Assembly: GCF_026967475.1 (NCBI RefSeq)
Contig: NZ_CP114058.1
Span: 2,852,001-2,916,000 of the forward strand
Reading direction: 5' to 3'
Length of the DNA: 64,000 bases
Source: Rouxiella chamberiensis
GTDB taxonomy: Bacteria; Pseudomonadota; Gammaproteobacteria; Enterobacterales; Enterobacteriaceae
This document shows positions 42,717 through 51,541 of this stretch, piece after piece. The first letter of the stretch is position 1. Each line of letters starts with the position of its first letter. The notes under the pieces are model-generated. The model saw nothing but the letters and a program-made list of their open reading frames with translations. It had not been told where the DNA came from and made no database searches. A program made the position numbers and the translations under genes.

Positions 42717-43097
42717 GGGGCTGATTCTGGATTCGACGGGATTTGCGAAACCCAAGGTGCATGCCGAGGTGCGGAGGCCTCGTAAAAAACCGCAAAAAAA
42801 ATAATTGCAAACGACTCGCAATTCGAATCTGCTGCTTTAGCAGCTTAATCAGTCTAATACACTGAAGGTTCCCTCTCTCCCTAGCCTCCGCTCTTAGGAC
42901 CGGGATCAAGAGAGGTCAAACCCAAAAGAGCTCGCGTGGACATCCTGCCTGGGGTGAAAGCGTTAAAACCAATCAGGCTAGTTTGTTAGTGGCGTGTCCG
43001 TCCGCAGCTAACCGGTGAATGTGATGACTGGACTAAGCATGTAGTGCCAACGGCGTAGTAATTTCGGACGGGGGTTCAAATCCCCCCAGCTCCACCA
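42717..43097 (+). ncRNA. ssrA: Transfer-messenger RNA (tmRNA)
   Basis: 381 nt. The 5' end GGGGCTGATTCTGGATTCGA and the 3' tRNA-like end with T-loop GTTCAAAT and CCAGCTCCACCA pair as the acceptor stem. The resume codon GCA opens a tag frame reading ANDSQFESAALAA followed by TAA, three residues longer than the E. coli tag. The pseudoknot segment CCCTCTCTCCCTAGCCTCCG is conserved. It rescues stalled ribosomes with SmpB. Its 3' end is the integration site of the downstream island. Confidence 0.98.
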
Positions 43098-43179
43098 AAT
43101 AAGTTTTCGGCTATTACCAGATAAGGCCTTAAACGCAGAAGAAGCCCGCATCCCCAAAGGTTGCGGGCTTTTTTGTGTC
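43083..43179. repeat. attL: 97-bp direct repeat spanning the ssrA 3' end
   Basis: Identical over 97 bp to 50707-50803. It begins in the acceptor stem (CCCCCAGCTCCACCA) and includes the ssrA terminator. Confidence 0.95.
43142..43174 (+). terminator. ssrA terminator
   Basis: AAGCCCGCA pairs with TGCGGGCTT around an 11-nt loop and runs into T6. A second identical copy lies at 50766-50798 in attR. Confidence 0.85.
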
Positions 43180-43217
43180 TGTAGAAGTCCGAGAAGATCC
43201 GCCTGAAACCGGCGTCT

Positions 43218-43259
43218 ATTGGTATACGCTAAGATATATACCAATAAACGTATACCAAT
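43218..43259. repeat. Left integrase arm-type sites
   Basis: ATTGGTATACG (43218-43228) and its inverted copy CGTATACCAAT (43249-43259), with a partial copy TATACCAAT at 43237-43245. The same 11-mer occurs at the right end of the island (50623-50633), as expected of recombinase arm-binding sites. Confidence 0.6.
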
Positions 43260-43275
43260 TATGGAAGATCATTGC

Positions 43276-44490
43276 ATGGCGCGGACTACACGCCCCATCA
43301 CCCACACCGAAGTACAAAAAGCTAAAGCCACAGACAAGGACCTCACATTGCATGATGGTGACGGGCTCTTTCTCCTGGTCAAAACAACCGGCAAGAAAAT
43401 TTGGCGTTTTCGCTACCAGGTGCCTAGCACTTCAAAACGCACCATGATTAGCCTCGGCGCTTATCTTGCTCTTTCACTGGCTGATGCCAGAGAAGTGCAT
43501 GCAGAGAAGCTTGCGATGTTAGTCAAAGGAATAGACCCACAAGCAAGAGCTGGCGAAGAAGCTGAGAAGCTCCAGATCGCTCAGGAAAGCATTTTCGTTA
43601 ATGTTGCACGTAAATGGTTCGAGCTGAAACAAAGTCACGTCAGCGCTGACCATGCTAAAGATATCTGGCGTTCTATTGAGAAAGACATCCTGCCCAGTAT
43701 TGAAAATGTTCCTGTTCAGGAGCTGAAAGCACGCGCCTTGATCCAGGTGTTAGAACCAATCAAAGCGCGGGGAGCATTGGAGACGGTCAGAAGGTTAGTG
43801 CAGCGCATCAATGAAATTATGATTTATGCGGTGAATGTTGGACTAATTGAGGCAAATCCAGCTTCAGGTATCGGTAATGCCTTTAAGCGCCCTAAGAAGC
43901 AGCACATGCCAACGATACGCCCTGAAGAACTGCCCAAGCTAATGCGCACTATTTCTATGAGCAACTTGTCGATACCAACCCGTTGCCTGCTTGAGTGGCA
44001 ACTGCTGACCCTCATACGACCAGCAAAAGCATCGGCAACAGCCTGGTCAGAGATCGATATAGACAATAAGCATTGGTGTATTCCGGCTGAACGGATGAAG
44101 GCAAAGCGTGACCATATCGTCCCCTTGTCAGATCAAGCTTTAGAGTTGCTGGAGATTATGCGTCCTATTAGTAGTAATCGTCAGTACGTTTTTCCTAGCC
44201 GCAATGACCCAAAAAAACCGATGAACAGTCAAACAGCGAATGCCGCCTTGAAGCGTATTGGATATGGTGGAAAGTTGGTAGCTCATGGCTTGAGATCTAT
44301 AGCTAGTACTGCTATGAATGAAAAGGGTTTTAACTCTGATGTTATCGAGGCTGCACTTGCTCATAGTGATAAGAATGAGGTCAGAAAAGCCTATAATCGA
44401 ACTACATATTTAACGCAACGAACTGAGTTGATGAGTTGGTGGGGCGACGCGATTTATTCAATTGATTTCTTTAAAAAGGAGGCGAAATGA
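43276..44490 (+). CDS. P4-type tyrosine integrase
   Basis: 404 residues from the ATG at 43276 (GGAAGA upstream). The N-terminal DUF4102 arm-binding domain has THTEVQKAKATDKDLTLHDG and GLFLLVKTTGKKIWRFRY; a central core-binding domain spans about 100-195; the catalytic domain has the first Arg in LLTLIRPAKA, HGLRSIAST (His-x-x-Arg) and the nucleophile Tyr in RKAYNRTTYL. The LIRPAKASATAW segment departs from the usual VRPGE but keeps the Arg. It drives insertion at ssrA. Its stop overlaps the next start (ATGA). Confidence 0.93.
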   Translation: MARTTRPITHTEVQKAKATDKDLTLHDGDGLFLLVKTTGKKIWRFRYQVPSTSKRTMISLGAYLALSLADAREVHAEKLAMLVKGIDPQARAGEEAEKLQIAQESIFVNVARKWFELKQSHVSADHAKDIWRSIEKDILPSIENVPVQELKARALIQVLEPIKARGALETVRRLVQRINEIMIYAVNVGLIEANPASGIGNAFKRPKKQHMPTIRPEELPKLMRTISMSNLSIPTRCLLEWQLLTLIRPAKASATAWSEIDIDNKHWCIPAERMKAKRDHIVPLSDQALELLEIMRPISSNRQYVFPSRNDPKKPMNSQTANAALKRIGYGGKLVAHGLRSIASTAMNEKGFNSDVIEAALAHSDKNEVRKAYNRTTYLTQRTELMSWWGDAIYSIDFFKKEAK

Positions 44491-45734
44491 GTAAATACCA
44501 AAAAATTGATTTAGCATATGATTTTTTAATTGAGAAGGAAAAAGCAGGGGCCACCTTCAAAATGACTGAGCTGTCAGCGGCAAGCACATGGTCACCAAAA
44601 ACTTGCTCAACGCATATATCAAAAAAGCTTAACGCCTATTTTCAAAGAGAAGGTGATGATTATATAACCAATGGCATTCTTTTTTTGAGTAAAAATGACT
44701 TCAGAGCAACACTAAGTCAAATAGCGACACTCTCAAATAATTATTCCAGAAAGGGAATCCTTCTTAACAAAGCCAAAGAATTTGCAGTTCTAGCTGTTTC
44801 AACATATAACAACCCAACTATAAAATTCAAAACTTATGGCTTTATAGTAAACATGAATATAGCTTTCACATCTTTATTTCATGCCATATTTGAAAAAAAT
44901 GGAATTGATTATTTTTATAAGAATGGAATTGGGGATACTGTATTCATTGATGGAGAAGAAAAAGCATGGGAATTAAAGGAGTGCACAGAGAAATACTGGT
45001 TAGGAACAACCTCCCCAATTAAGTCTAATCTTCATTTTTTGATTGGTCTTAGAAATAAAATTGAACATCGTTTCTTACCTGTGATTGACTTGATGTGTAG
45101 TGGAGAATGTCAAGCGGCGTTAACTAATTTTGAAAATATTATTACTAAAGAGTTTGGTGATGAACATGCTTTGCTGGTAAACCTAGCTGTATCCATGCAA
45201 CTTAGCCGGGCATCTACCGAAGCTAAGGTTGAAGCATTAAAACAATTCCAATCACAAAACTATTCCATAGTGAGGGAGTTTATGAATGCCCAACATCATG
45301 AGCTAAACCAAGAAACACTGGAGAGTCAAGAATATCGCATCAAAGCCTTTTTAATTCCTAAAATAGGAAACCATGCCTCCACATCAGATTTATCAATAGA
45401 GTTTGTGAATTTCAGGAAGCTTAGCGCTGAAGAAAAAGAACAATATGAACAAGGAATAACCTTTATCAAGGAAGTAAGGACCCCGTTTATACATAAACCA
45501 TCTGACATCGTATTGAAGATAAAAGACACACACCCATTTTTTAATATGGCACTACACACCAAGTGCTGGAAATTTTTCGAAGCCAGACCGATAGAGGTTA
45601 ACGTTGACTTCAAAGGACCTTATTCTGGATTTGTATTGGGCTTCAATAACTACCTTTACACAAATGATTGGATTGCATATTTAAAAGAACAGCTTAACGA
45701 TGAAGTCGCACTGCGTAATATACGTGCATCTTAA
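44487..45734 (+). CDS. DUF3644 protein with HEPN-type motif
   Basis: 415 residues. Residues 1-65 look like a winged helix (ASTWSPKTCSTHISKKL). Residues about 95-235 are the DUF3644 region: NIAFTSLFHAIFEKNGIDYF, ELKECTEKYW and FLIGLRNKIEHRF. R189-NKIE-H194 fits the R-x4-H catalytic motif of HEPN RNases, a superfamily rich in toxins and defence effectors. The C-terminal half is of unknown fold. It has AAGGAGG inside the integrase gene and starts 4 nt before its stop. It is AT-rich, unlike the core genome. With the kinase gene 9 bp downstream it forms a two-gene unit; a regulated toxic RNase is inferred, not shown. Confidence 0.75.
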   Translation: MSKYQKIDLAYDFLIEKEKAGATFKMTELSAASTWSPKTCSTHISKKLNAYFQREGDDYITNGILFLSKNDFRATLSQIATLSNNYSRKGILLNKAKEFAVLAVSTYNNPTIKFKTYGFIVNMNIAFTSLFHAIFEKNGIDYFYKNGIGDTVFIDGEEKAWELKECTEKYWLGTTSPIKSNLHFLIGLRNKIEHRFLPVIDLMCSGECQAALTNFENIITKEFGDEHALLVNLAVSMQLSRASTEAKVEALKQFQSQNYSIVREFMNAQHHELNQETLESQEYRIKAFLIPKIGNHASTSDLSIEFVNFRKLSAEEKEQYEQGITFIKEVRTPFIHKPSDIVLKIKDTHPFFNMALHTKCWKFFEARPIEVNVDFKGPYSGFVLGFNNYLYTNDWIAYLKEQLNDEVALRNIRAS

Positions 45735-45743
45735 GGATTAATA

Positions 45744-46844
45744 ATGAATAGTTACTTTCGGTTAGATAGAGATTGGGGATTCTTACAGGCTTTAGAGGAA
45801 ATTAATTCTCATTACAGGCCCGGAGGTATGGTTTCTGGAATGGCTAGAAATGTTCAAATACAAAACTGGGGGGTGATAGTTGGTCGAACTCGAGCACTTG
45901 CCGAGGTTGAATTTGCAATATCATCACTGGGATCAAAAAGCAAACTTTGCAAATCAATACAAATCTCAGCCTCATCATTGAATTCAATGATTAGTTTTTT
46001 TGAACGTCTTCCTAATGACATCCATAATCAAGGCATCAAACAGGGAACATCAGTAGCAGGACATTTGTTACTTCGTCAGATTGGAAAGGGAGGAAATGCA
46101 GTGGTATGGAAAACCAGGAATCAAAACAACAAATTTCACATAATGAAAATCGCGAGACGTGCCAAAGGCATATCTTTATCTAGATTCAATGATGAGATCG
46201 CCACATTAAAAAAAATAGCCGCCATCAATGACAATAACATTCATACAATACCCATAACAAGCAACTATTCAAACTTGGATGATGATGGATTAGCTTGGTT
46301 TACCATGCCTGAAGCTATTCCATTAGATAATTATTTAGAGAAACACTCATCAACTCCCCTGAGCATTCTAAAAGGCATGGTTGACATTTGTAAAACAATC
46401 GAAAGACTTCACGCAAACAAAATATTTCACCGTGACATTAAGCCGGACAATATTCTTATTTATCAAAACAAATGGGCTTTAGGTGATTTTGGTATTGCAA
46501 CATTCCCTGATAAACAAAAAGTAACGAAGGAAGGGACTAAGATGGGATCATTGCATTACTATGCGCCGGAAATGCTAAGCAACTCCCCTGAAAACTCTGG
46601 TTCACATGCAGATGTATATAGCTATGCAAAGTCATTATGGGCTCTATTAAGTGGAAATAGATTCCCCATAGCTGGAGAGCTCCGCTTAGACCGCCCCGAA
46701 GCCTTAATATCAACTTACTGTAAGATTGTGAATATTGAGTTATTGGACGAAATAATCTCAGCTTGTACAAGTTATACACCAACGAATCGCCCTTCAATTT
46801 CTGATCTAAAGACTACTATTGAAAAAGTGATTGAGGGTAAGTGA
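45744..46844 (+). CDS. Eukaryotic-like Ser/Thr protein kinase
   Basis: 366 residues. After a ~105-residue N-terminal region without known domain comes a complete kinase: glycine loop IGKGGNAVVW (113-122), catalytic lysine in HIMKIARR (K135), HRDIKPDNIL (229-238), DFG (248-250), APE (274-276) and DVYSYAKSLW (290-299). All catalytic residues are present, so it should be active. AAGGA precedes the ATG, 9 bp after the DUF3644 gene. Lone kinases in satellite islands often act in abortive-infection systems such as Stk2-like or BREX/Pgl-like ones; the partner here suggests control of the HEPN protein. Confidence 0.88.
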   Translation: MNSYFRLDRDWGFLQALEEINSHYRPGGMVSGMARNVQIQNWGVIVGRTRALAEVEFAISSLGSKSKLCKSIQISASSLNSMISFFERLPNDIHNQGIKQGTSVAGHLLLRQIGKGGNAVVWKTRNQNNKFHIMKIARRAKGISLSRFNDEIATLKKIAAINDNNIHTIPITSNYSNLDDDGLAWFTMPEAIPLDNYLEKHSSTPLSILKGMVDICKTIERLHANKIFHRDIKPDNILIYQNKWALGDFGIATFPDKQKVTKEGTKMGSLHYYAPEMLSNSPENSGSHADVYSYAKSLWALLSGNRFPIAGELRLDRPEALISTYCKIVNIELLDEIISACTSYTPTNRPSISDLKTTIEKVIEGK

Positions 46845-47496: not shown

Positions 47497-47745
47497 CAGT
47501 GAGCGTAGGAACTCCGGTGGTGGCGATAACCGCTACTTCAGGGAGACTGCCATCATGGCTACCGTCCTTAATTCCCCATGCCCTCAGTTTGTTTTCGTCT
47601 TTGCCGCCGTGCGCCGTAATGAACGCCAGCAGCGTATCCACATGCTCCGCACCGTTGCCGCTGACGAACGCACCGCCCGATTGCCGCTGGCCCGCGATTA
47701 CGTACTGTCCCTTGTCGCCTGCCGGTCCGGGAGGTGCGCGCATGA
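47417..47745 (+). pseudogene. ash: Ash family protein of P4-like elements, frame-broken
   Basis: Starts [18 protein letters not shown] and continues [29 protein letters not shown] and RDYVLSL, the recurring pattern of the phage Ash family found upstream of the alpha primase in P4 satellites. Near 47713 the frame is off by one. In the shifted frame the conserved ending RLPVREVRA precedes TGA at 47743-47745, which overlaps the next ATG (ATGA). About 109 residues when repaired. Function in host interaction is only loosely known. Confidence 0.7.
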
Positions 47746-48584
47746 CTCACGCCACCATTTCCCACGCCGACCTGTTACGCCTTGAGCATCTGCGTAACGC
47801 CGGGCGCTTTATCAGCGACATGACCCTGCTTCAGGAGTGCCACGAGCAACCACCGGCCGCACAGCAGGCGCAGCTGAATTCGCTGATTATCCTGCCCGAC
47901 CAGGAAAAATGGAGCGGCGACGGCGCGGGCATCAAGGCGATTACCGGTGGAGATGCGGTTTCCGTGGACCCGAAGTACCGTGACGCCTATTCAACCCACA
48001 TACCGGCGGTGATTCTGGCGGTGAACAACAACCCGATGCGCTTCACCGATCGCAGCGGAGGCGTGTCGCGCCGCCGGGTGATCCTGCACTTCCCGGAAAT
48101 CATCCCGGCAGGCGAGCGCGATCCGCAGCTGAAGGAAAAAATCAGCGGTGAGCTGGCCGTTATTGTGCGCCAACTGATGCAGCAGTTCAGCCAGCCACAG
48201 CAGGCCCGGTCGCTGCTTCAGTCGCAGCAGAACTCCGACGAGGCGATGCGCATCAAGCGCGACGCGGATCCGATGGTGGACTTCTGCGGCTATCTGTTCA
48301 CGACGCCGGAGCCAAACGCGCTTTACATGGGAAACGCCAGCATCAGACCGCTTCAGCCCAGGCGTTATCTTTATCACGCCTATCTGGCTTATATGGAGGC
48401 CAATGGCTACAAGAATCCGCTGAGCATGAAGATGTTTGGCCTGTCGCTGGAAAGCATCATGCGTGAGTACGGACAGCACTACATGAAACGACGGACAAAG
48501 CTGGGGGTGCAGACCAACCTTGATTTAAGGGAAGAAAGCAGCACCGACTGGCTGCCGAAGTGCGACGGTCCGGCAGCAGCATGA
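47742..48584 (+). pseudogene. Internally deleted P4 alpha primase/helicase (C-terminal part)
   Basis: 280-residue chimera. The first ~40 residues ([20 protein letters not shown] type) come from the small gene that normally follows ash; from IILPDQEKWSGDGAGIKAIT onward it is the C-terminal part of P4 alpha, including AVILAVNNNPMRFTDRSGG and RRRVILHFPEIIP. The primase domain and Walker A are missing, so replication activity should be lost. A reading that starts at 47499 is antisense-like upstream and rejected. A terminator follows the stop. Confidence 0.75.
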
Positions 48585-48696: not shown

Positions 48697-49536
48697 GTGA
48701 ATACTTGGGTCATTTATGTAGCTGGAATTTCTAAAAAAAATTACGACATTGGTAAGCAATACGAAACATGGGGAATAAAAAAGCTAGTTAAAAACTCTTT
48801 ATTTATGAATATAAAGGTTGGTGATAATGTTATTTTTATACATAACATTACACGCCCCAAAAATATTTTTCCAGACAAAATCCCTGGATTCCCAAGAGTA
48901 AACCTTAATAATTTTAAAAAATTTGAAGGGGTGGTTAATGAAATCATAATGGCTAAAGTTACTAATAATTATAGCTACAGTAATGAAACGATATGGCCAG
49001 ATGACATATATCCACATAGATTTAACTTCCAAATAAAAGAAACACAAGAAAATGTGCTATTCACTATTGAGGAAGTAGGTGAACCTTTAATTGAATCAGC
49101 TTTATTATCATTCCATTTGAAAGGTGACATTGCTTTAACTCAAGTAGAAGCATCCTCAGTCAGTGCAAAAATTCATATAGTGAATGATTTAAACTACGCC
49201 ATTGAAGGTGGAGCATCATATAAAATTCATAAAAAAATAGAGCGCAATAGAAAAATAGTTGAAAGTAAGAAAGAAGAATTTATCAAAAGGCATGGCAAGC
49301 TATTTTGTGAAATCTGTAACTTCTCATTTGAAGATGTTTATGGAACAGCCCTTAAAAGATCATCTATTGAGTGCCATCACGTTAACCCATTAGCTGAGAA
49401 TGGAAAGAAAGAAACGCGGCTTTCTGATTTAGTTCTACTTTGTCCTAATTGCCATAGGGTTTTGCATCAGCATAATCCATGCTTAGATGTTAAGAAACTA
49501 ATTGAAAGCATGAAAATGATAACTCATGTTAAATGA
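48697..49536 (+). CDS. EVE-like/HNH protein, predicted modification-dependent endonuclease
   Basis: 279 residues from a GTG at 48697 (AAGGA 6 bp upstream). The N-terminal ~145 residues resemble the EVE/PUA-like fold that reads modified bases: MNTWVIYVAGIS, VGDNVIFIHN and WPDDIYPHRFNF. The C-terminal HNH nuclease has C204-x2-C207, the ECHHVNPL motif (H227, H228) and CPNCHRVLH (C249, C252, H257), an McrA-like zinc-bound beta-beta-alpha metal finger. Known EVE-HNH enzymes cut DNA containing modified cytosines, a type IV restriction. It is AT-rich cargo between two terminator copies. Confidence 0.82.
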   Translation: MNTWVIYVAGISKKNYDIGKQYETWGIKKLVKNSLFMNIKVGDNVIFIHNITRPKNIFPDKIPGFPRVNLNNFKKFEGVVNEIIMAKVTNNYSYSNETIWPDDIYPHRFNFQIKETQENVLFTIEEVGEPLIESALLSFHLKGDIALTQVEASSVSAKIHIVNDLNYAIEGGASYKIHKKIERNRKIVESKKEEFIKRHGKLFCEICNFSFEDVYGTALKRSSIECHHVNPLAENGKKETRLSDLVLLCPNCHRVLHQHNPCLDVKKLIESMKMITHVK

Positions 49537-49889: not shown

Positions 49890-50585
49890 GTGGACGCCAC
49901 CAAAAATTTCATTCTGCACGGACTTGCAAACTTTGGCCTGAGCGACTTACCAGGTAGACCTTACGATAGTGCGTTTGAACTATTGGCCTCACCACCTGCT
50001 CGAAAGCGCCTCATCATGATGGGACTGAATGGTTCATCAGTAGACGCCCATATGACTAATTACCTATCCGTCATCAATGATTATGAGTTCCCTTATGTTT
50101 CAAATGTCCAGAGTGGAACCGAAGGCGCATGGGGAATAACTCATCTGGCTAAACGATTGCAGCAGATTCCGGCTCAGCTTGATTATAACTGGCAAGATGT
50201 CGTTTATACGAATGCCTTAATGATGTGCTCTGTAAACGCTGCATCATTGAAAAATGAAGCGTTCAAACTCAATCAAACACTCGAAGATCTGGTAAAAAAT
50301 TCGATGGGCTTCTTTGAGAACGTAACACTCCCTCTATGCAATCCAGATATGATTATCGCTTACAGTAATGGGCTATCTTCACTTTCCGCAGCAAGCCTTT
50401 TGTTTAAACATTTCGGGGATAAAAACACACTGAAATATTCGCATCCAAAAGGCTATTACACTACGTTCGCCTTTCTGGCTAAGTTCAAAGATCGTAGCAT
50501 CCCGGTAATCTGCATTCGGCACATGTCGAGGTTTAAACCCCAACAGGATTACATCAAAACAGCGATTTCTTTAATGGAGCATTGA
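49890..50585 (+). CDS. Unrecognised island protein, weak uracil-DNA-glycosylase-like pattern
   Basis: 231 residues from a GTG at 49890. No family is recognised with confidence. The order of short motifs recalls the UDG superfamily: LIMMGLNGSS (41-50, like motif GLNP), DVVYTNALMMCS (103-114, like the TN-x-V-K strand), NPDMIIAYSNG (151-161) and HPKG (185-188, like the HPS loop). If so it could act on modified DNA, but this is a guess from pattern order only. It is the last gene before attR. Confidence 0.5.
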   Translation: MDATKNFILHGLANFGLSDLPGRPYDSAFELLASPPARKRLIMMGLNGSSVDAHMTNYLSVINDYEFPYVSNVQSGTEGAWGITHLAKRLQQIPAQLDYNWQDVVYTNALMMCSVNAASLKNEAFKLNQTLEDLVKNSMGFFENVTLPLCNPDMIIAYSNGLSSLSAASLLFKHFGDKNTLKYSHPKGYYTTFAFLAKFKDRSIPVICIRHMSRFKPQQDYIKTAISLMEH

Positions 50586-50706: not shown

Positions 50707-50803
50707 CCCCCAGCTCCACCAAATAAGTTTTCGGCTATTACCAGATAAGGCCTTAAACGCAGAAGAAGCCCGCATCCCCAAAGGTTGCGGGCTTTTTTGT
50801 GTC
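50707..50803. repeat. attR: 97-bp direct repeat with displaced ssrA 3' end
   Basis: Perfect copy of 43083-43179, holding the original ssrA acceptor-stem end and terminator displaced by the insertion. Confidence 0.95.
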
Positions 50804-51541
50804 CCTAATAGTGCAAAAACGATACGGGTTTGATTTTTTGCCTGAACTTTGGGAAACAAGAACTTATGAATTCCTAATGACATTACATCAGGTGTAAAAT
50901 CGTAGCCCCTTTTCGTGGAAGTGGCGGCAAAATGGCGACAGAGAAAGTGCGCCGTTTCAGACATACCCCCTCCTGTTCAAAATATACGCTTATCTGTCTC
51001 AAGCATTTTGGCTTTATTACAGGCTGGCGGCTTGGGCTTTCAAGGATATTAAGGTGTTAGCGTCCGAATAGAGGTATTGATTATCCGCCCAAACATCAAT
51101 AATCACCACGCAGGGACAAGGCTATAAGAGCATAGGCACAACACTTTTTGAGTGCGTGACCACTTGTCCAGTGCCCAGTGAATTTGAACTAATCTTTTAA
51201 CAAGTTTCAGCATCAAACAAATTTCGTAAATTATAAAACGAATAAGTCAAAACCTGACTCGATACGCTCGGCCAAAAAAATCCCCGCTATTTACCGAATA
51301 TGCCTTTATCGTAGAAAAATCCCGCTTCGCCCAAAATAACAGGCTTGTTCGTTTGGTCGGTTTTAACTTATTGATCTTGCACGCCTAACAAACCTGCGCG
51401 CCTTCAAATTACTGAGCAAAATATCGACTCTAGGATTGTTTCACCGCGTCATCCCCGTTAGCGTAACAGCTTATTTAATCATCTATATCAATAACATAGA
51501 TAGATTATATATTTCCTTCCTCCTATATAGGTTCAATCAAT
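50804..51541. other. Gene-poor stretch beyond attR
   Basis: 738 bp without a convincing gene. A minus-strand ORF (50695-50964) is mostly antisense to the att repeat. The mixture of short open stretches and AT-rich sequence resembles decayed mobile DNA from an earlier insertion at ssrA. No operator or RNA recognised. Confidence 0.4.

What the first reader, a model, noticed from the sequence alone, without database searches (positions are those of the whole stretch)
44487..46844. Two-gene HEPN (DUF3644) plus Ser/Thr kinase module coupled to an integrase
The DUF3644 protein has R189-NKIE-H194, the R-x4-H motif of HEPN ribonucleases; the gene 9 bp downstream encodes a kinase with every catalytic residue. 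The pair is AT-rich and sits at the int-proximal position where P4 satellites carry defence cargo. Its first start codon overlaps the integrase stop (ATGA). I know of no described system of exactly this composition. Hypothesis: a phage-sensing kinase activates or restrains a toxic RNase, giving abortive infection.
Basis: partly seen in the sequence, partly recalled or inferred. Interest (0 to 1): 0.8.

Follow-up and report, generated by a model that had tools for sequence, protein, structure and literature searches.

The report
HEPN RNase–kinase pair in phage satellite
A worn-out phage satellite in an enteric bacterium still carries two intact neighbouring genes, a predicted RNA-cutting toxin and a protein kinase, and the kinase's front domain turns up elsewhere on the toxin itself and on a third protein type, which suggests a swappable anti-phage alarm and effector.

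The parts
43083..43195 (.). left att-like direct repeat (end of ssrA and adjacent bases)
   Evidence: 113-nt direct repeat, 94%; overlaps the end of the tmRNA gene at 43097
43219..44490 (+). P4-type tyrosine integrase (true start may lie downstream of this TTG)
   Evidence: NCBIfam PRK09692 562 bits, Pfam Phage_integrase 112 bits
44487..45734 (+). DUF3644 protein: wHTH (about residues 1-80), HEPN domain (about 92-225, R189NKIEH194), uncharacterised C-terminal part
   Evidence: Pfam PF12358 160 bits; PADLOC PDC-S19 311 bits; R/H invariant; wHTH and HEPN fold from a homologue's model
45744..46037 (+). N-terminal ~95-aa all-helical, HTH-like domain of the kinase (no Pfam match); shared with DUF3644 fusions and Schlafen/AlbA_2 fusions
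   Evidence: HMM built from the kinases finds it at the N-terminus of 10 of 120 listed DUF3644 homologues, E 1e-29 to 4e-17; model helices 13-23, 29-46, 48-62, 65-72, 76-88
46038..46844 (+). Hanks-type Ser/Thr kinase domain with all catalytic motifs
   Evidence: Pfam Pkinase 95 bits, alignment of 18, model pLDDT 88
47499..48584 (+). remnant of P4-family primase (C-terminal third only)
   Evidence: PHROG 2249 positions 572-800 of 802; TIGR01613 67.9 bits, below cut-off 108.7
50707..50819 (.). right att-like direct repeat

Best explanation
The pair is int-proximal defence cargo of a decayed P4-type satellite. The DUF3644 protein is a wHTH-HEPN ribonuclease effector. The kinase carries an HTH-like N-terminal domain that senses an infection cue or docks on the effector, and the kinase domain phosphorylates the effector or itself to license RNA cleavage, stopping phage growth at the cost of the cell. 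Shown: intact genes, operon-like spacing, conserved RX4H and kinase residues, HEPN and wHTH fold match for a homologue, satellite setting, and the domain shared by kinase and DUF3644 proteins. Inferred: RNase activity, sensing or docking role of the domain, phosphorylation of the effector, activating direction, anti-phage outcome.
Against: No activity data. Where read, DUF3644 genes lack this kinase, and the E. coli relative of the kinase pairs with a different protein, so the two genes could be separate cargo. No clear candidate phosphosite. In five of six genomes that carry the domain on an AlbA_2 protein my HMM found no DUF3644 in the 9-18 kb read; that HMM also missed one divergent Pfam-positive DUF3644 (L133). 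B379's locus is followed by IS26 and resistance genes, so a kinase could have been lost there by rearrangement.
Confidence: 0.45

Rival explanations
1. Two independent defence genes stacked in one hotspot: DUF3644 as a single-gene RNase system (PDC-S19-like) and the kinase as its own effector, like other defence kinases.
For: None of 80 DUF3644 loci has the domain-kinase, and 28 of the closer loci share no partner (largest neighbour cluster 3 of 28); a kinase of the family sits beside another protein in E. coli; PADLOC defence-kinase models match the kinase domain; prophage Ser/Thr kinases can be toxic effectors (PMC11341870, passages).
Against: The kinase's N-terminal domain recurs fused to and beside DUF3644, which stacking does not predict; the kinase is second gene of a tight pair in both settings (9 and 54 bp).
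Confidence: 0.27
2. Toxin-antitoxin pair: the kinase silences the HEPN toxin by phosphorylation, as MntA silences HepT by AMPylation; infection removes the block.
For: HEPN toxins of HEPN-MNT pairs are the nearest solved folds; MntA modifies HepT beside RX4H (PMC7641770, passages).
Against: The acceptor position of RX4HXY is F196 in the window; DUF3644 is widespread without a shared partner.
Confidence: 0.18
3. Satellite-helper control: the pair regulates satellite or helper phage gene expression through its HTH-like and wHTH domains rather than defending the cell.
For: Both proteins carry predicted HTH-type domains; a prophage kinase module controls lysogeny as well as defence (PMC11341870, passages).
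Against: Invariant RNase motif; DUF3644 also occurs on plasmids and in phyla far from P4 hosts; satellite core genes are decayed here while the pair is intact.
Confidence: 0.1

Closest known systems
DUF3644 / EC042_2821 HEPN family (Anantharaman 2013, PMC3710099, passages); PADLOC candidate PDC-S19
   Same: Same Pfam family, wHTH N-terminus, RX4H HEPN motif
   Different: No adjacent kinase and no shared N-terminal domain mentioned in the passages I read
HEPN-MNT (HepT-MntA) toxin-antitoxin, PMC7641770 (passages)
   Same: HEPN RNase beside an ATP-using protein-modifying enzyme; best structural match
   Different: Partner is a kinase, not a nucleotidyltransferase; Tyr acceptor of RX4HXY missing; effector found without this partner at 80 of 80 loci
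CapK-CapS and VapK-VapS-VapC (PMC13373217, abstract and passages)
   Same: Portable kinase (CapK with an HTH domain of unknown role) beside diverse immune operons; VapKSC releases an RNase by phosphorylating its antitoxin
   Different: GHKL-type kinases with STAS partners, not Hanks-type; no HEPN
KKP kinase-kinase-phosphatase of prophages (PMC11341870, passages)
   Same: Mobile-element Ser/Thr kinases in phage defence
   Different: Two kinases plus phosphatase; kinase toxicity itself is the effector
IRE1 / RNase L (kinase with KEN, a HEPN domain; PMC3710099, passages)
   Same: Kinase-type domain paired with a HEPN-family RNase in stress or antiviral response
   Different: Eukaryotic single polypeptides; here two genes, with a domain of unknown role in front of the kinase

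Membership tests
DUF3644 (PF12358) | Pfam score above gathering cut-off | tested here: met
   160.3 bits, cut-off 27.6
HEPN superfamily ribonuclease | conserved R-x4-6-H | tested here: met
   RNKIEH; invariant in 120 of 120 listed homologues and present at 7 of 7 Pfam-search loci
HEPN superfamily ribonuclease | HEPN helical-bundle fold | tested here: met
HEPN superfamily ribonuclease | RNase activity | not testable with these tools
   -
Hanks-type Ser/Thr kinase | Lys, Glu, HRD, Asn, DFG, APE motifs and kinase fold | tested here: met
HEPN-MNT toxin-antitoxin | RX4HXY with acceptor Tyr | tested here: not met
   RNKIEHRF: F196 at the Tyr position (motif from PMC7641770)
HEPN-MNT toxin-antitoxin | adjacent MNT nucleotidyltransferase | tested here: not met
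   the two flanking genes are integrase and kinase by Pfam
MADS kinase MAD6 | NCBIfam equivalog cut-off | tested here: not met
   82.3 bits against 460; the PADLOC mad6 match covers residues 89-364 only, against 34-315 of 659
KKP module | two kinases and a phosphatase | tested here: not met
   one kinase and no phosphatase among the six proteins scanned
P4 psu-int defence hotspot | cargo directly behind int of a P4-type element | tested here: met
   primase remnant
P4 psu-int defence hotspot | psu on the other side | tested here: not met
   no psu relative in the window, as expected if the satellite has decayed; in E. coli the related kinase does lie between int and psu
Abi N-terminal domains (AbiJ-NTD and others) | match of the kinase N-terminal domain to a described Abi-NTD | tested here: inconclusive
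   no Pfam family reaches its cut-off in this domain; whether every published NTD has a model I did not check

The most novel reading that the evidence does not exclude
An undescribed HTH-like domain is the common input module of a combinatorial bacterial immune family. It can plug directly into a HEPN RNase (fusion), or act on it in trans through a Ser/Thr kinase or a Schlafen/AlbA_2 protein, and the kinase can also drive a non-DUF3644 effector. The kinase-HEPN version is then a two-polypeptide bacterial counterpart of kinase-RNase signalling as in IRE1/RNase L.
Probability: 0.3. Interest if true: 0.8.

Novelty: new variant of a known kind. Interest (0 to 1): 0.6.

Why it matters
DUF3644 HEPN proteins are numerous (2031 homologues at E 0.001), yet the name occurs in only one held paper. 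The shared domain gives a handle on how they may be triggered: three natural arrangements of one input domain with one effector family can be compared directly. A kinase that licenses a HEPN RNase would add phosphorylation control to bacterial HEPN immunity.

Tried and rejected
Fixed two-gene system: rejected for the family at large. Integrase coupling as a special feature: rejected, the same ATGA overlap occurs with other P4 cargo. Phosphosite hunt: kinase-clade DUF3644 has 13 clade-specific Ser/Thr/Tyr positions beside 72 clade-specific invariant columns; eight other clades have 0-9 beside 4-74. The clade of most similar divergence has 6 beside 74, but three others have 7 beside 20, 9 beside 34 and 8 beside 28, so no clear enrichment; four of the 13 (30, 34, 36, 41) lie in the wHTH, a lead only. 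E. coli 495-aa partner: no Pfam family above cut-off, no NCBIfam or PADLOC family; it looked nuclease-like to me by eye only. PDB sequence searches with DUF3644 and with the N-terminal domain: best E 0.14 and 0.032, unrelated proteins. Foldseek with the DUF3644 model: nothing at E 0.001; the VIA second look gave HEPN toxins. Protein-database search with residues 1-98 of P0076 found only itself and P0080 among 34 candidates, a sensitivity limit since genome searches found more. IMG/VR: kinase scans gave 14 and 1 loci, none with the domain; no relative of a fused DUF3644, of the 495-aa or of the AlbA_2 protein. Domain searches without a match: 0 of 392, 0 of 369, 0 of 198, 0 of 30, 0 of 20, 0 of 4, 0 of 5 genomes, draws partly overlapping. 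Host genus not identified: best recN match about 71% in the 119 genomes sampled. Literature: DUF3644 in one held paper, PDC-S19 in none. Listings of searches for kinase with HEPN or for P4 cargo show no such pair (two searches showed 15 of 141 and 15 of 35). Passages of DefensePredictor (PMC13092281) report four validated systems with HEPN domains among 31; I could not see whether one is DUF3644. Only open-licence papers and no supplements could be searched.

Full report
WHAT IS THERE. The two genes are present and intact: DUF3644 at 44487-45734 and kinase at 45744-46844, 9 bp apart, the first overlapping the integrase stop. The element is a decayed P4-type satellite in ssrA: tmRNA 42717-43097, P4-type integrase, 113-nt direct repeats at 43083 and 50707, 7.6 kb apart, a primase reduced to its C-terminal third, and no psu relative. 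GC inside the pair is 0.35-0.37 against about 0.50 in the flanking chromosome.

THE KINASE. The catalytic motifs are present and conserved across 18 aligned proteins; the model is good (pLDDT 88). 25 relatives passed E 1e-15; DUF3644 homologues number 2031 at the laxer E 0.001, so the sizes are not strictly comparable, but the kinase family is clearly small.

THE SHARED DOMAIN. In front of the kinase lies a ~95-residue domain with no Pfam match. An HMM built from 17 of the 18 aligned kinases was run on the 145 proteins held. Besides the kinases, which match by construction, it finds exactly 10 of the 120 listed DUF3644 proteins, the ten that are 508-532 aa long, always at the N-terminus (E 1e-29 to 4e-17). 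Invariant columns of a mixed alignment include W11, G27, G32, R35, N36, W42, G47, A51. Both models give the same five helices; the last three resemble a helix-turn-helix, with only weak Pfam hints (YdaS_toxin E 0.17; HTH_Crp_2 E 0.14). In whole genomes the domain is rare: 3 of 394 in the order, 3 of 217 and 1 of 116 in the families of the Vibrio and Shewanella loci (one genome shared), none in the other draws (misses). All six distinct genomes carry it in front of a Schlafen/AlbA_2 domain (Pfam for five; the sixth, L118, by eye, its gene being split). In one (L110) that gene ends 69 bp before a wHTH-DUF3644 gene with an RX4H motif; in the other five my HMM finds no DUF3644 in the stretch read, though this HMM missed one divergent Pfam-positive DUF3644 (L133). 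DUF3644 itself is in 7 of 128 genomes, including the centre chosen for having it. Three arrangements of two uncommon things are unlikely to be chance; they say that the domain and the HEPN effector work together.

HOW FIXED IS THE PAIR? Not fixed across the family. The genome scan kept the 80 best of 117 DUF3644 loci; none has the domain or its kinase in the held flanks of up to 8 kb. 60 of the 80 hold at least 1.2 kb on both sides of the gene. Two hold a distant kinase-domain hit about 5 kb upstream without the domain (L015, L076). At the 7 Pfam-search loci there is none either. An important limit: the best of the 80 is 57% identical, so the window's own clade (P0001-P0007, 60-94%) is not sampled, and within it the pairing may well be stable. 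Of 28 closer loci examined for neighbours within 4 kb, the largest shared neighbour cluster covers 3. Some DUF3644 genes sit just behind integrases (L020, L138) or in contigs with P2-like genes (L100-L102; the P2 identity is my reading). In E. coli, 7 of 5426 genomes carry a kinase of this family (57% identical, domain included). In all 7 the gene before it, at the same spacing, is a 495-aa protein without a family match. In the two loci read in full this lies in a P4 satellite at the selenocysteine tRNA, between int and psu, and the 495-aa gene overlaps the int stop. A 57%-identical relative of that protein stands behind an integrase without a kinase in strain B379, where IS26 and resistance genes follow, so later loss is possible. 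The kinase tree has separate clades for the window group and the E. coli group. Kinase-paired DUF3644 proteins fall in two places of the DUF3644 tree, the window clade and P0073 (quick tree; two of the three pairs are inferred from equal contig lengths, not read).

MECHANISM. The fusion shows that the domain can act on the HEPN protein directly, so the domain is most simply an input or docking module. The kinase looks like an optional transmitter that can also serve another protein. Since DUF3644, and a relative of the E. coli partner, exist without it, it is unlikely to be an obligatory antitoxin; I favour licensing over silencing. The HepT-style acceptor Tyr is absent (F196), and I found no clearly enriched candidate phosphosite. 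CapK/VapK shows that a kinase can be a portable controller next to immune operons and that an RNase can be released by phosphorylation (PMC13373217, abstract and passages); KKP shows mobile Ser/Thr kinases in defence (PMC11341870, passages).

NOVELTY. HEPN effectors, defence kinases and P4 cargo hotspots are known kinds. The combination, and above all the shared domain in three partners, I did not find in the held literature (listings and passages of six papers; open-licence papers only, no supplements). I file it as a new variant of a known kind.

Noticed in passing
window 48697-49536: 279-aa protein with C-terminal HNH endonuclease (Pfam 1.1e-8), a PADLOC type IV restriction match (1.6e-6) and a weak N-terminal match to PRK00809 (9e-5), which I recall as an EVE-domain protein: probably a second defence cargo in the same island.
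   Followed up: partly
window 49890-50585: 231-aa protein without a match in Pfam, PADLOC, NCBIfam or PHROGs; it reminded me of uracil-DNA glycosylase-like proteins by eye only.
   Followed up: no
L106 3907-5394, L111 4962-6461, L112 4908-6371: A 487-499-aa family of unknown function in E. coli, behind integrases (L106, L111) or in a prophage-like region with a SEC-C tail (L112), with the domain-kinase only in the first.
   Followed up: partly
L097, L098, L099/L110, L118, L119, L120: The same N-terminal domain in front of Schlafen/AlbA_2 in six genomes, in five without a detected DUF3644 nearby.
   Followed up: partly
L100: A DUF3644 gene in a viral contig with a reverse-transcriptase-like gene about 0.4 kb upstream; a relative of that gene also lies about 1.5 kb downstream of DUF3644 in L022.
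   Followed up: no
L138: An integrase-like frame ends 29 bp before a split DUF3644 gene in another genome, the same int-proximal placement as in the window.
   Followed up: no
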